NCBI GenBank assembly: GCA_030448005.1 | Contig: JAUJNT010000004.1 | Coordinates: 1-57,239, forward strand | DNA length: 57,239 bases | Direction of reading: 5' to 3' | Origin: Thermoleophilaceae bacterium | GTDB taxonomy: Bacteria > Actinomycetota > Thermoleophilia > Solirubrobacterales > Thermoleophilaceae | Shown: positions 25,277 to 30,392 of the stretch, in pieces | Numbering within the stretch: the first letter of the stretch is position 1 | How the letters are laid out: every line of letters begins with the position of its first letter | The notes under the pieces: model-generated | Database searches by the model: none | What the model saw: only the letters and a program-made list of their open reading frames with translations | What the model was told of the DNA's origin: nothing | Made by a program: the position numbers and the translations under genes

Positions 25277-25972
25277 ATGGAGATCACAGTTGTCGAGGAC
25301 GTGGCGGGCGCCGCCGCCGAGCGGATCGCCGAGCGCGTGCGTGCCGGCGGACACATCGCGCTGTCGGGTGGCTCGACCCCGCGCGCCGCGCACGAGCGCG
25401 TGGCGGAGGCGGACCTCGACTGGGGGCGGACGACGCTGTGGTTCGGTGACGATCGCGCCGTACCTCCCGACCATGAGCACTCCAACTTCGCGATGGCCAA
25501 GGCGAGCCTGCTCGATCGCCTGAAGGGCGAGCCGCCCGACGTGCACCGCATCCAGGGCGAGCTCGGCCATGAGGAAGCGGCTGCCGCCTACGAGCGCGAG
25601 CTGAGGCAGGCGTTCGGCGAGGGACCGCCACGGATCGACCTCCTGATGCTCGGTATCGGCCCCGACGCCCACTGCGCCTCCCTCTTTCCCGGCGATGCGG
25701 CGCTATCCGAGCGCGAGCGCTGGGTCACCGGCGTGGACACGCCCGGCTTGCCCCCGCTGGTGTCCCGGGTGACGGTTACCCTTCCCGTCCTCAATGCGGC
25801 TGGCGCAGTGTTGTTCTTGGTCTCAGGAGATGACAAGGCCGAGGCCGTGGCGCGCGCGTTTGGCGACGCCCCGGGCCCCGACGCCCCGGCCAGCCTGGTG
25901 CGCCCCGACCCGGGCCGGCTCACCGTGCTGCTCGACCCGCCGGCGGCGGCACGGCTCGGGGAGAGCAGATGA
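25277..25972 (+). CDS. pgl: 6-phosphogluconolactonase
   Basis: Hydrolyses 6-phosphogluconolactone to 6-phosphogluconate, linking zwf to gnd. 231 residues, usual for the NagB/Pgl-like family. Motifs: ALSGGSTPRAAH, the WFGDDRAVPPDHEHSNFAM substrate region, and LLMLGIGPDAHCASLFPG with the catalytic His (usual form G-x-G-x-DGHTASLFPG; here PDAHCAS). The start is ATG 25277 after GGGGGAA. The stop overlaps the GH15 start (ATGA). Confidence 0.92.
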   Translation: MEITVVEDVAGAAAERIAERVRAGGHIALSGGSTPRAAHERVAEADLDWGRTTLWFGDDRAVPPDHEHSNFAMAKASLLDRLKGEPPDVHRIQGELGHEEAAAAYERELRQAFGEGPPRIDLLMLGIGPDAHCASLFPGDAALSERERWVTGVDTPGLPPLVSRVTVTLPVLNAAGAVLFLVSGDDKAEAVARAFGDAPGPDAPASLVRPDPGRLTVLLDPPAAARLGESR

Positions 25973-27954
25973 GCCCATTCAGGCCCCACAGCGGCATGTT
26001 CATACCGGGCAGCGGCGCCTTGGACACCAAGGTCCTCTTCGACTCCGACAAGACGATCGCCTCGAGCTCCTTTCCGCCCGTCGCCGACTACGCCTTTCTC
26101 TCTGACTGCGAGACCACGGCACTGGTGGCGCCCAGCGGCAACGTCGAGTGGATGTGCATTCCACGGATGGACTCGCCGAGCGTGTTCGGCTCGATCCTCG
26201 ACCGTGACGCCGGTACCTTCAGGATCGGGCCGGCCGACATCCAGGTGCCCGCCTCCCGGCGCTACCTGCCCGGCACGATGGTGCTCGAGACCAGCTGGGG
26301 CACCCGCGGCGGCTGGATCATCGTGCGCGACGTACTGCTGATAGGCCCATGGCATCACGAGCACGACCGATCGACGACCCATCGACGCTCGCCGACCGAC
26401 TACGACGCCGACCATGTGCTGTTGCGCATCGTGCGCTGCGTGAACGGGGAGGTGCAGACCCACCTCGACTGCGAGCCGGTGTTCAACTACGGGCGTGACT
26501 TCGCCACCTGGGAGTACGCGGGCCCCGGCTACCACGAGGCCACGGCCCAGGCCGATGGCACCGACATCCAGCTGCGCCTGACCTCCGACATGAACATCGG
26601 CTTCGAGGGCCCGCGCGCCACCGCCCGGACGCTGATGAAGGAGGGCGACACCCTCTTTGCGGCCCTCTCGTGGTCCGAGCACCCCGCCCCGCGGGACTAC
26701 GACGAGGCCTACGAGCGGCTGGTCTGGACCGCCCACCACTGGCAGCACTGGCTCGATCACGGGGCGTTCCCCGACCACCCGTGGCGCACGTTCCTGCAGC
26801 GCAGCGCGCTGACGCTCAAGGGGCTCTCCTACGCGCCCACCGGCGCGATGGTGGCCGCCGCCACCACCTCACTGCCGGAGACTCCCGGTGGCCAGCGCAA
26901 CTGGGACTACCGCTATACGTGGATGCGCGACTCCACCTTCATGCTGTGGGGCCTGTACACCCTCGGCTTCGACTGGGAGGCCAACGACTTCTTCTACTTC
27001 ATCGCCGACGTCGCGGAGGCCGAGCGGGGCCAGCTGCAGATCATGTACGGCATCGACGGTGAGGCAAAGCTTGAGGAGAAGGTGCTCGATCACCTCTCGG
27101 GCTACGAGGGCGCCCGACCGGTGCGCGTCGGAAACGGCGCGTACAACCAGGAGCAGCACGACGTGTGGGGCGCCGTGCTCGACTCGGTGTATCTGCACAC
27201 GAAGTCGCGGGACCACCTACCCGAGCGGCTGTGGCCGATCCTCGTCAAGCAGGTCGAGGACGCCATCGCCCACTGGCGGGAGCCCGATCGCGGGATCTGG
27301 GAGATCCGCGGGGAGCCCAAGCACTTCACCTCATCGAAGATGATGTGCTGGGTGGCGCTCGACCGCGGGGCACGGCTGGCAGAGATCCGGGACGACGCCA
27401 GGCGCGCCGAGGAGTGGCAGCGGACAGCGGACGAGATCCACGCCGACATCTGCGACAACGCCCTCGACGAGCGGGGGGTGTTCACCCAGCACTACGACAC
27501 CGATCAGCTGGATGCCTCGGTGCTTCTGATGCCGCTCGTGCGCTTCCTTCCGGCCGATGACGAGCGCATCCGCGGGACCGTGCTCGCAATCGCCGACGAG
27601 CTCACCGAGGAGGGCCTCGTGCTGCGATACCGCGTGGAGGAGACAGACGACGGGCTCGAGGGCGAGGAGGGCACCTTCACGATCTGCTCCTTCTGGCTCG
27701 TCTCGGCGCTCGTCGAGATCGGGGAGCTCAGCCGCGCCCGTGCCCTGTGCGAGAAGCTCCTCGGCTTCGCAAGCCCGCTCCAGCTCTACGCGGAGGAGAT
27801 AGACCCACGCTCGGGGCGCCACCTCGGCAACTTCCCTCAGGCCTTCACCCACCTCGCCCTCATCAACGCGGTCATGCACGTGATCCGGGCGGACGAGGAG
27901 TTCGAGCAGTCGCAGTTCGAACGCGAGTTGCGGCGCTCACGCGCCAACCGCTGA
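25969..27954 (+). CDS. Glycoside hydrolase family 15 (glucoamylase/trehalase type)
   Basis: A 661-residue cytosolic (alpha/alpha)6-barrel hydrolase that releases glucose from alpha-glucans or trehalose. The N-terminal beta domain includes SDCETTALVAPSGNVEWMCIPR. The catalytic part has NWDYRYTWMRDSTFML, the acid region GIWEIRGEPKHFTSSKMMCWVALDRG and LYAEEIDPRSGRHLGNFPQAFTH with the likely catalytic base. No signal peptide, so it acts on internal glucan or trehalose. Its 4-base overlap with pgl ties storage-sugar release to the pentose phosphate pathway. Glucoamylase versus trehalase cannot be settled from sequence. Confidence 0.92.
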   Translation: MSPFRPHSGMFIPGSGALDTKVLFDSDKTIASSSFPPVADYAFLSDCETTALVAPSGNVEWMCIPRMDSPSVFGSILDRDAGTFRIGPADIQVPASRRYLPGTMVLETSWGTRGGWIIVRDVLLIGPWHHEHDRSTTHRRSPTDYDADHVLLRIVRCVNGEVQTHLDCEPVFNYGRDFATWEYAGPGYHEATAQADGTDIQLRLTSDMNIGFEGPRATARTLMKEGDTLFAALSWSEHPAPRDYDEAYERLVWTAHHWQHWLDHGAFPDHPWRTFLQRSALTLKGLSYAPTGAMVAAATTSLPETPGGQRNWDYRYTWMRDSTFMLWGLYTLGFDWEANDFFYFIADVAEAERGQLQIMYGIDGEAKLEEKVLDHLSGYEGARPVRVGNGAYNQEQHDVWGAVLDSVYLHTKSRDHLPERLWPILVKQVEDAIAHWREPDRGIWEIRGEPKHFTSSKMMCWVALDRGARLAEIRDDARRAEEWQRTADEIHADICDNALDERGVFTQHYDTDQLDASVLLMPLVRFLPADDERIRGTVLAIADELTEEGLVLRYRVEETDDGLEGEEGTFTICSFWLVSALVEIGELSRARALCEKLLGFASPLQLYAEEIDPRSGRHLGNFPQAFTHLALINAVMHVIRADEEFEQSQFERELRRSRANR

Positions 27955-28051: not shown

Positions 28052-28249
28052 ATGGCTCCCGCAGCGGTGATCTCGATGAGCAAGGCCCGCAGCGCGGGCC
28101 CCTCGCTCGGACTGCTCGGCGATCGGCGGCTGACCCGAGAGGATGCGCCAGGCCCAGCTCAGCATGCAGCTCAGCCACAGGTCTACCAGCAGGCGATGCA
28201 AAGGGCTCAGCAGGTCATGAGCAACATGTTTCTCGCCCAGAGGAGATAG
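28052..28249 (+). CDS. Possible 65-residue protein
   Basis: ATG 28052 is preceded by AGGAG at good distance. The product begins MAPAAVISMSKARSAG and ends in a Gln-rich helix (VYQQAMQRAQQVMSNMFLAQRR). No family is recognised and no signal peptide or TM segment is convincing. It stands alone between the GH15 gene and the riboswitch. The ribosome binding site and codon phase make it worth listing, but it may not be real. Confidence 0.4.
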   Translation: MAPAAVISMSKARSAGPSLGLLGDRRLTREDAPGPAQHAAQPQVYQQAMQRAQQVMSNMFLAQRR

Positions 28250-28300
28250 GTCCTGACGGCGCATGGGCCGCGACGTTCTATCCGTGAGGCACTGCCTCAG

Positions 28301-28382
28301 AGACAAAACGGCAAACCCGCCGCGAGGCGGGGGCGCAAAACCAGGGGCCTCCTTCGGAGGCGGCCCAGTTGCCCAAGGAGGC
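28301..28382 (+). promoter_or_regulatory. c-di-GMP-I (GEMM) riboswitch
   Basis: The fold fits the class I c-di-GMP aptamer: ACGGCAAACC (28308-28317), a stem CCCGCC/GGCGGG closed by a GNRA tetraloop GCGA (28322-28325), the tetraloop-receptor side GGCGCAAAACCA (28332-28343), a second stem-loop (28344-28366, CCTCC-TTC-GGAGG core) and GTTGCC (28368-28373) closing with GGCAA of the 5' side. The G equivalent to G20 of the Vibrio Vc2 aptamer is kept, favouring c-di-GMP over cGAMP. The AAGGAGG ribosome site (28375-28381) starts right after the closing stem, so translational control is likely. Confidence 0.85.
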
Positions 28383-28387
28383 AAGAG

Positions 28388-29311
28388 ATGAAATTCACCA
28401 CCCGTCTGGCAACGGGAGCACTGATGGCTTCGCTCCTGGCAGTACCCGCTGGCGCCGAGGCAAAGCCGGTGTCCAAAGCCCGCACAGAGGCAGTGAAGGC
28501 CGATAAGTCGTTGGACCGTGTCGTCTCGCTCGCAAAGCGAAATCGCGACTCGGCCGCTGCCGGGGAGCTGCGTAACTACCGCCGCCATCTGCGCAGCGCA
28601 GAGGCCCAGGTTCGCCGGCAGCGTGCCTCCACAGGCAGCGTCGCCGGGGCAGAGAGCTATGGCCGCTCGGTCCGCGTGGTCGGAGCCGTGTCAGACCAGT
28701 GCGCCGACTCGCTCTCGCAGGTCGTCGGCGATGTCGGTGGCGGTCCTCAGGTAGCGCTCGCCAACGCGATCAAGGCATGCATCGCGGCCCGCGAACGCGT
28801 CGTCGAGGCCCTAACTCAGCTGCTCGACCAGGTGCCCGCGGAGGCCAGGCCCTATCTCGCCAAGGTGATCGCCATGCTCTCGACCGATGGGCAGAACGAG
28901 GTCGCGGCCATCACCGAGACTCTCGCCAACCCGGCCCTCCCGTCAGACGTCGCGGGCATCCTGACGCAGGCGCTCGAGATGGCCACGGCCGCGATCGACG
29001 ACGCGATGGCGCGGCTGCAGCAGGTGCTGGTCCTCGTGCCGGCCGACGTGCGGCCGATGGTCCAGGGCGCGCTCACGCTGGTGACCCAGCAGCTCCGGTC
29101 GGTCATGACGATGGTCAAGGACCTCCTCACCGGCCTGTTCGGTGGTGTGCCGACCAAGCCCGGCACGGGCACCTCGGGAGGCCTGCCCGGCTCCGGTGGG
29201 CTCCCGGGGCTGAACGTGCTGCAGGGCATCTTCGGCCAGGGGTTCCCATTCAACCTCGTGCCGATCGACCTGCCGTTCAACGTCTCGGGCTTCGGCTTCG
29301 CGACCCGCTGA
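28388..29311 (+). CDS. Secreted helical protein under c-di-GMP riboswitch
   Basis: A 307-residue exported protein. Signal peptide MKFTTRLATGALMASLLAVPAGA, then a charged helical N-terminal region (KARTEAVKADKSLDRVV), a long amphipathic all-alpha domain with two Cys (DQCADS, KACIAA), and a Gly/Pro linker (TKPGTGTSGGLPGSGG) to a hydrophobic C-terminus (FPFNLVPIDLPFNVSGFGF). No catalytic motif. A matrix, adhesion or surface-coating role would fit control by c-di-GMP, but this is inference. AAGGAGG lies seven bases before ATG. Confidence 0.8.
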   Translation: MKFTTRLATGALMASLLAVPAGAEAKPVSKARTEAVKADKSLDRVVSLAKRNRDSAAAGELRNYRRHLRSAEAQVRRQRASTGSVAGAESYGRSVRVVGAVSDQCADSLSQVVGDVGGGPQVALANAIKACIAARERVVEALTQLLDQVPAEARPYLAKVIAMLSTDGQNEVAAITETLANPALPSDVAGILTQALEMATAAIDDAMARLQQVLVLVPADVRPMVQGALTLVTQQLRSVMTMVKDLLTGLFGGVPTKPGTGTSGGLPGSGGLPGLNVLQGIFGQGFPFNLVPIDLPFNVSGFGFATR

Positions 29312-29326
29312 GGGACGCTAGCCGCT

Positions 29327-29368
29327 CCGGGGCCCCCGCTCGCTCTGCGCTCGGGGGCCCCGGCCTTT
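29327..29368 (+). terminator. Strong terminator hairpin
   Basis: A 12-bp perfect stem (CCGGGGCCCCCG 29327-29338 with CGGGGGCCCCGG 29352-29363), loop of 13 bases, followed by CCTTTG. It ends the secreted-protein transcript 15 bases after its stop. Confidence 0.75.
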
Positions 29369-29492
29369 GCGGGTCCGCGTACGTGCCCTATGCGGCGGGC
29401 CGGGATGGCCCAATGGCCGCCAGCGGGCGGGATATGAGCTGCCGCGGTTTGGCTCAGCCCACTAGCTCTCCCACCAGGCGCGGCCGGTCGGG

Positions 29493-30392
29493 TTACAGCT
29501 TGACGTCGGCCACCATGGCGGCGAACAGCAGCGCGAGGTAGGCAAGCGAGTAGAGGTAGAGCCAGAGCGCCGCACGGCGGTCCGCGCGCCGGTAGAGCCT
29601 CCAAGCGCCCCCGATGAACACCGCGCCCAGGGTGACCGAAGCCGCCAGGTAGATGCCACCGAACCCTCCGGCGCAAAACGGGAGCTGGGTGACCGCGTAT
29701 AGAAGCAGCGAGTAGAGGAGGATCTGCCTGCGGGTCTCTCGCTCGCCCCGGACGACCGGAAGCATGGGGACGCCGGCCTTCGCGTAGTCGTCCTTCATCA
29801 GCAGCGAGAGCGCCCAGAAGTGCGGAGGGGTCCAGTAGAAGACGATGGCGAAGAGGTAGAGCGCCGTCCAGCCGAGCCCGCCGGTGACGGCCGCCCAGCC
29901 GACAAGCGGCGGCACCGCGCCGGCGGCGCCGCCGATCACGATGTTCTGGGGCGTCGAGCGCTTGAGCCACAGCGTGTAGACCAGCGTGTAGCCGAGAAAG
30001 CCCGACAGCGACAGCGCCGCGGCGAGCGGGTTGACGCCGATCGCGAGCACCGCGAACGCGAGTGTGCCGAGCACGATCCCGTAGGCCAGTGCCGCGCGGG
30101 GCGCCACCCGACCCGAGGCCACCGGTCGGTCCGCGGTGCGCTTCATGCTGGCGTCGATGTCGCGGTCGTACCAGTGGTTGACCGCACCCGCCCCTCCGGC
30201 CGAGAGGTAGCCGCCGACGCAGGTCAGCAGCACGAGCGAGAACGACGGCTCTCCGGCGATGAACATGGCGGACACCGTGGTGAACAGCAGCAGCGACTGC
30301 ACCTTGGGCTTTGTCATCTCGATGTAGTCCGAGACCACCTGGCGCAGCCCCGGGGCGGCCGCGCGGATGGCTGGGGCCGCCGGCTGGCTCAC
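29493..30392 (-). CDS. ctaB: Protoheme IX farnesyltransferase (heme O synthase)
   Basis: UbiA-family membrane prenyltransferase that adds the farnesyl group to heme b to make heme o for aa3/caa3 oxidases. 299 residues, about nine TM helices. First Asp-rich motif NHWYDRDIDASMKRTADRP, and the second conserved loop with KRSTPQNIVIGG and YWTPPHFWALSLLMKDDYAKAG. The GTG start at 30392 overlaps the ctaA stop (GTGA), so it is cotranslated with heme A synthase. It lies next to pentose phosphate genes, a synteny also known from mycobacteria. Confidence 0.95.
   Translation of the reverse strand: MSQPAAPAIRAAAPGLRQVVSDYIEMTKPKVQSLLLFTTVSAMFIAGEPSFSLVLLTCVGGYLSAGGAGAVNHWYDRDIDASMKRTADRPVASGRVAPRAALAYGIVLGTLAFAVLAIGVNPLAAALSLSGFLGYTLVYTLWLKRSTPQNIVIGGAAGAVPPLVGWAAVTGGLGWTALYLFAIVFYWTPPHFWALSLLMKDDYAKAGVPMLPVVRGERETRRQILLYSLLLYAVTQLPFCAGGFGGIYLAASVTLGAVFIGGAWRLYRRADRRAALWLYLYSLAYLALLFAAMVADVKL

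What the first reader, a model, noticed from the sequence alone, without database searches (positions are those of the whole stretch)
28301..29311. c-di-GMP-I riboswitch fused to the ribosome site of a secreted protein gene
GNRA tetraloop, CGCAAAACC receptor side, two-stem fold and the closing GGCAA/TTGCC pairing are present, and the G20-equivalent is kept. The aptamer ends one to two bases before AAGGAGG, leaving almost no expression platform, so P1 closure itself may gate ribosome access. The target is an uncharacterised secreted helical protein with a Gly/Pro linker: a candidate matrix or attachment factor.
Basis: partly seen in the sequence, partly recalled or inferred. Interest (0 to 1): 0.7.

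Follow-up and report, generated by a model that had tools for sequence, protein, structure and literature searches.

The report
c-di-GMP riboswitch touching a ribosome-binding site
A soil actinobacterium carries a real c-di-GMP-sensing RNA switch that runs straight into the ribosome-binding site of an unknown secreted protein, and the same RNA-plus-protein pairing recurs in related bacteria; the switch class is known, but the protein family and this compact layout are undescribed as far as could be searched.

Summary
The riboswitch is real. Window 28301-28377 scores 62.0 bits on Rfam RF03167 (cut-off 59) and 59.7 on RF01051 (cut-off 35). The ligand-contact letters are the canonical c-di-GMP set (G20, A47, C92). 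The RF03167 'GGC' label is misleading, because that model's own consensus has G at position 47. The genome holds four such aptamers and several GGDEF matches. The downstream secreted all-helical protein has no credible Pfam or NCBIfam match. Of 34 examined homologous hits in relatives, 23 lie directly behind the same aptamer. Aptamer helices covary. A second hairpin (P0, 28285-28299) just upstream covaries (0 of 3000 permutations) only in leaders where the aptamer abuts the Shine-Dalgarno sequence, not in pilin-type leaders. No transcription terminator was found in the leader, so control is probably at translation. The direction is unresolved. I favour OFF (the ligand-closed aptamer and P1 cover AAGGAGG); ON through a TTGCC/GGCAA hairpin is a serious rival. 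A matrix or attachment role is plausible but untested. Known riboswitch class, new target family, compact layout.

The parts
28253..28281 (+). promoter-like element CTGAC-N17-GTTCTAT; predicted transcript start about 28284-28288
   Evidence: (C/T)TGAC or GTTAC-N11..20-GTT seen 28-33 nt before G20 in 6 of the 24 family leaders listed (a seventh lies at 42 nt); related pattern in 7 of 24 against shuffle mean 0.29, max 2 of 300. The sigma-70 scan found none, so this is inference
28285..28299 (+). P0 hairpin TGAGGC-ACT-GCCTCA (SD-like 5' arm, anti-SD-like 3' arm)
   Evidence: Permutation of arms: family z -4.4, all SD-fused leaders z -7.5 (0 of 3000); non-fused leaders z -0.8; dinucleotide shuffles z -4.0 in the family
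28301..28377 (+). c-di-GMP-I (GEMM-I) aptamer; G20=28310, A47=28337, C92=28372
   Evidence: RF03167 62.0 bits; RF01051 59.7 bits; pocket letters
28316..28331 (+). P2 stem with GCGA tetraloop (28322-28325)
   Evidence: 97.9% of cells paired, 3 of 6 pairs with changes on both sides
28340..28369 (+). P3 stem
   Evidence: 95% of cells paired, 3 pairs with changes on both sides
28293..28298 (+). UGCCUC, candidate 5' strand of an extended P1, complementary to SD GAGGCA (28378-28383); shared with P0
   Evidence: Sequence; 5' flank against consensus SD, family z -3.2; no pair-specific covariation
28347..28354 (+). GCCTCCTT in P3, exact 8-nt complement of SD AAGGAGGC (28375-28382)
   Evidence: Sequence; paired in the computed ligand-free minimum; not covarying across relatives
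28369..28384 (+). alternative hairpin TTGCC-CAAGGA-GGCAA, exclusive with C92 in the pocket
   Evidence: Sequence; seen in computed ligand-free folds of L001, L014 and L021; association of G91 with GGC after the SD, Fisher p 0.005 without phylogenetic correction
28375..28381 (+). Shine-Dalgarno AAGGAGG
   Evidence: Sequence; an SD within 8 nt of C92 in 53 leaders
28388..29311 (+). 307-aa secreted, all-helical protein of a family without a described domain
   Evidence: ORF; no Pfam or NCBIfam match for this protein; AlphaFold2 mean pLDDT 78.6, nine helices between residues 11 and 251; homologues

Best explanation
This is a canonical c-di-GMP-I riboswitch in the 5' leader of a gene for a secreted helical protein, in an uncultured member of the Solirubrobacterales (probably Thermoleophilaceae). 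Shown by sequence comparison: the aptamer, its canonical pocket, its overlap with the SD, the covarying upstream hairpin P0, and the conserved coupling to this protein family. Inferred: c-di-GMP binding controls translation initiation, not termination. My preferred direction is OFF. Without ligand, P0 forms and the leader is loose enough for the 30S subunit to reach AAGGAGG. With ligand, the strand holding C92 locks into the folded aptamer and P1 closes, extended by UGCCUC:GAGGCA in this copy, so the SD two bases away is covered. Estimated likelihoods: c-di-GMP ligand about 0.9; control of translation about 0.75; OFF about 0.5, ON about 0.35.
For: Rfam scores over both cut-offs. G20, A47 and C92 kept here and in nearly all of 156 relatives; RF01051 consensus CGCAAA against RF03167 CGCGAA at position 47. 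P2 and P3 covariation, 0 of 500 shuffles reach the covariation score. GGDEF matches at E down to 1.8e-44 in the same genome. 23 of 34 examined homologue hits preceded by the aptamer. SD within 8 nt of C92 in 53 leaders. P0 covaries only in SD-fused leaders. No forward-strand terminator-like site at 28150-29450. Anti-SD strand upstream in the family (z -3.2). Vc2 is a precedent for a translational OFF c-di-GMP-I switch where P1 stability is decisive (PMC9262584).
Against: No ligand or expression data exist. The consensus P1 is poor here. Computed SD opening cost is lower in the bound state for 19 of 24 family leaders and equal for the window, which leans away from OFF. Own-partner tests for anti-SD:SD pairing are negative. 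A stable P0 would keep UGCCUC away from the SD.
Confidence: 0.55

Rival explanations
1. Translational ON switch. Without ligand, TTGCC (28369-28373) pairs with GGCAA (28380-28384), or the P3 strand GCCUCCUU pairs with AAGGAGGC, hiding the SD. Ligand recruits G91 and C92 into the pocket and locks P3, while P0 keeps the anti-SD strand occupied, so the SD is freed.
For: Computed ligand-free folds of L001, L014 and L021 show P0 plus the TTGCC/GGCAA hairpin, and the window's free minimum pairs P3 with the SD. SD opening cost falls on binding in 19 of 24 family leaders against 15 of 28 other fused leaders. GGC after the SD goes with G91 (p 0.005). Vc1 activates an attachment protein gene in response to c-di-GMP (PMC4744006).
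Against: No pair-specific covariation for either pairing within the family. The GGC association is confounded by descent (within the family p 0.18). Outside the family mean SD opening costs hardly change on binding.
Confidence: 0.35
2. A member of the variant class c-di-GMP-I-GGC with an altered ligand, as the Rfam label says.
For: Best Rfam score is RF03167, 62.0 bits over a cut-off of 59.
Against: The letter that separates the two consensus lines, G at position 47, is A here and in nearly all relatives tested. RF01051 is also matched far above its cut-off.
Confidence: 0.05
3. Degenerate or constitutive leader: the aptamer persists but no longer switches.
For: Weak consensus P1; equal computed SD cost in the two states; a 73%-identical paralogue in the same genome lacks the leader.
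Against: Pocket letters and helices are conserved across the family; P0 and the aptamer are kept together.
Confidence: 0.1

Closest known systems
c-di-GMP-I riboswitch (GEMM-I), Rfam RF01051; Vibrio cholerae Vc2 and Vc1
   Same: Same core, GNRA-capped P2, P3 and pocket letters G20, A47, C92; Vc2 is translational; Vc1 precedes an attachment protein gene
   Different: Here the SD begins two bases after C92, with no separate downstream expression platform, and a covarying hairpin lies directly 5' of the aptamer; Vc1 has a 225-nt 5' UTR
c-di-GMP-I-GGC, Rfam RF03167
   Same: Best Rfam score; nearly the same consensus
   Different: Its position-47 G is A here, so the pocket is the ordinary c-di-GMP one
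3',3'-cGAMP (GEMM-Ib) riboswitches
   Same: Same fold (established knowledge)
   Different: They carry a changed letter at the G20 position; here it is G
Riboswitches whose aptamer contains the SD (SAM-II, preQ1-II, SAM-III; own knowledge)
   Same: Works like: aptamer folding could mask the SD directly
   Different: Different ligands and folds; an analogy, not membership

Membership tests
c-di-GMP-I riboswitch (RF01051) | Covariance-model score above the gathering cut-off | tested here: met
   59.7 bits against 35
c-di-GMP-I riboswitch (RF01051) | Ligand-contact letters G20, A47, C92 | tested here: met
   28310 G, 28337 A, 28372 C
c-di-GMP-I riboswitch (RF01051) | P2 with GNRA loop, and P3 | tested here: met
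   GCGA loop; covariation in both helices
c-di-GMP-I riboswitch (RF01051) | P1 closing helix | tested here: inconclusive
   Two of three consensus pairs non-standard in the window; an alternative extended P1 UGCCUC:GAGGCA exists but does not covary
c-di-GMP-I riboswitch (RF01051) | Binds c-di-GMP and changes expression | not testable with these tools
   Needs in-line probing or ITC and reporters
c-di-GMP-I-GGC (RF03167) | Covariance-model score above the gathering cut-off | tested here: met
   62.0 bits against 59
c-di-GMP-I-GGC (RF03167) | G at position 47, the letter that differs between the two consensus lines (that the name stands for G20/G47/C92 is my inference) | tested here: not met
   A at 28337; consensus lines CGCGAA against CGCAAA
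3',3'-cGAMP riboswitch (GEMM-Ib) | Changed letter (A) at position 20 | tested here: not met
   G at 28310
Known protein family for the target | Pfam or NCBIfam match | tested here: not met
   No match for the window protein up to E 0.01; only scattered weak matches among 25 members
Known fold for the target | Convincing structural match to a natural solved protein | tested here: inconclusive
   No Foldseek match at E <= 0.001; best VIA-align matches are designed helical repeats (Z 17.8 down), natural ones about Z 13 or less

The most novel reading that the evidence does not exclude
SD-fused GEMM-I leaders are a distinct, recurring riboswitch layout in Actinomycetota with no downstream expression platform. 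A dedicated 5' hairpin (P0) carries an SD mimic and an anti-SD strand, so three strands (mimic, anti-SD, SD) exchange partners around the ligand-bound core to gate production of a set of surface proteins, including a new secreted helical family encoded next to ECF-type sigma factors.
Probability: 0.3. Interest if true: 0.6.

Novelty: new member of a known kind. Interest (0 to 1): 0.4.

Why it matters
It links c-di-GMP to an uncharacterised secreted protein family in a lineage of soil actinobacteria known largely from metagenome-assembled genomes, and gives that family its first functional clue. If the SD-fused layout with P0 is confirmed, it shows how a c-di-GMP-I aptamer can act with almost no expression platform, which would make a small translational sensor. 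It also warns that the Rfam label c-di-GMP-I-GGC can be attached to aptamers with an ordinary c-di-GMP pocket.

Tried and rejected
Pairing tests between anti-SD, C92-strand or P3-strand and each leader's own SD gave no pair-specific covariation, so none could be chosen on that basis. The first bound-state fold used a faulty constraint for P2 and was replaced. GGCAA/TTGCC as closing helix was rejected against the known fold. The altered-ligand reading was rejected on position 47. Reading six relatives as G47 came from a pattern that caught an overlapping GCGCGC; they carry CGCAAA. Fold searches gave no informative natural relative. The defining paper for the GGC variant was not held.

Full report
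What was checked. The window is contig C9 positions 1-57239 of a 3.23-Mb genome. I infer an uncultured Solirubrobacterales species.

The aptamer. cmscan places a c-di-GMP-I-type aptamer at 28301-28377 (+): RF03167, 62.0 bits, cut-off 59; RF01051, 59.7 bits, cut-off 35. Four copies occur in the genome: the window, a second copy on C8 before a homologous secreted protein, one on C6 before tandem type IV pilin genes, and one on C4 before a short ORF. The two Rfam consensus lines differ at position 47: CGCAAA in RF01051, CGCGAA in RF03167. The window has A there, with G20 and C92, and nearly all of 156 distinct relatives share this triplet once a pattern artefact in six is corrected. I therefore file it as c-di-GMP-I, not as the GGC variant; that the name GGC denotes G20/G47/C92 is my inference. 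On an alignment of 24 family aptamers the helices hold in 96.5% of cells with 12 double changes, and no shuffle of 500 reaches the covariation score. GGDEF domains occur in the genome; no EAL domain was found.

GCGA is a GNRA loop and G20 is kept. GGCAA/TTGCC is not an aptamer helix: G21 and C22 pair with C46 and G45 in all 24 relatives. The consensus P1 is weak here. The SD starts two bases after C92, so the Rfam match overlaps it.

The target. The 307-aa ORF begins with a signal-peptide-like stretch (by eye) and has no Pfam or NCBIfam match. AlphaFold2 gives confident helices over residues 30-251 and a low-confidence Gly/Pro-rich tail. Structural searches return mainly designed helical repeats. 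Homologues occur in 21 of 151 genomes searched, and 23 of 34 examined hits have an aptamer directly upstream. Many lie next to a gene resembling an ECF sigma factor with a long tail (named from sequence, not from a domain search). Genes behind other aptamers include glycoside hydrolase-like proteins, ice-binding-like proteins, CAP, beta-helix and subtilase proteins and pilins. A surface or matrix role is plausible, untested.

The leader. In 53 leaders the SD lies within 8 nt of C92; in others, chiefly pilin leaders, it is far downstream. Only the SD-fused leaders have a hairpin directly upstream of the aptamer: swapping arms between sequences destroys its stability (family z -4.4, all fused z -7.5, 0 of 3000; non-fused z -0.8). 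In the window it is TGAGGC-ACT-GCCTCA. In the window family the arms are often GAGGC-like and GCCTC-like; in the other fused leaders they are of other sequence, so the anti-SD reading of P0 is not general. Its 3' arm can also pair with the SD, as can the P3 strand GCCTCCTT and the C92 strand TTGCC. None of these three pairings shows pair-specific covariation. Folding with and without an imposed aptamer gives SD opening costs of 3.4 and 3.3 kcal/mol for the window, and a lower bound-state cost in 19 of 24 family members. These energies ignore ligand and tertiary contacts. The direction of control is therefore open; I rank OFF slightly above ON because the SD is physically part of the aptamer's 3' edge and because Vc2 is a translational OFF switch, while Vc1 shows that ON before an attachment gene also exists. 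No forward-strand terminator-like site was found at 28150-29450.

Limits. Sequence relatedness is not corrected for in the shuffles. Gene starts for relatives were assigned by a simple rule. The literature search covered open-access text only, so absence of a description is not proof of novelty.

Noticed in passing
G000:C8:665654-666478 (L068) against window 28150-28520: A 73%-identical paralogue keeps the upstream GATAGGTCCTGAC and the coding DNA but lacks roughly 28265-28412 (leader, aptamer, SD, first codons): a leader-less, possibly silent copy.
   Followed up: partly
L001, L014, L079, L027, L074, L081, L067, L045, L048, L050, L242, L243: A gene resembling an ECF sigma factor with a CxxC-like motif and long C-terminal tail lies just upstream of many family genes, but not of the window copy.
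   Followed up: partly
L074 (G016:C4) and window 25969-27954: The glucoamylase-like gene upstream of the riboswitch gene is shared with another genus, so this neighbourhood is old.
   Followed up: no
L161, L165: Some genomes carry two successive c-di-GMP-I aptamers before tandem pilin genes.
   Followed up: no
G000: GGDEF domains without any EAL match; c-di-GMP breakdown may use another enzyme type, not searched.
   Followed up: no
window 28699-29970: Long overlapping ORFs in other frames (280 and 372 aa) over the target gene look like high-GC artefacts.
   Followed up: no
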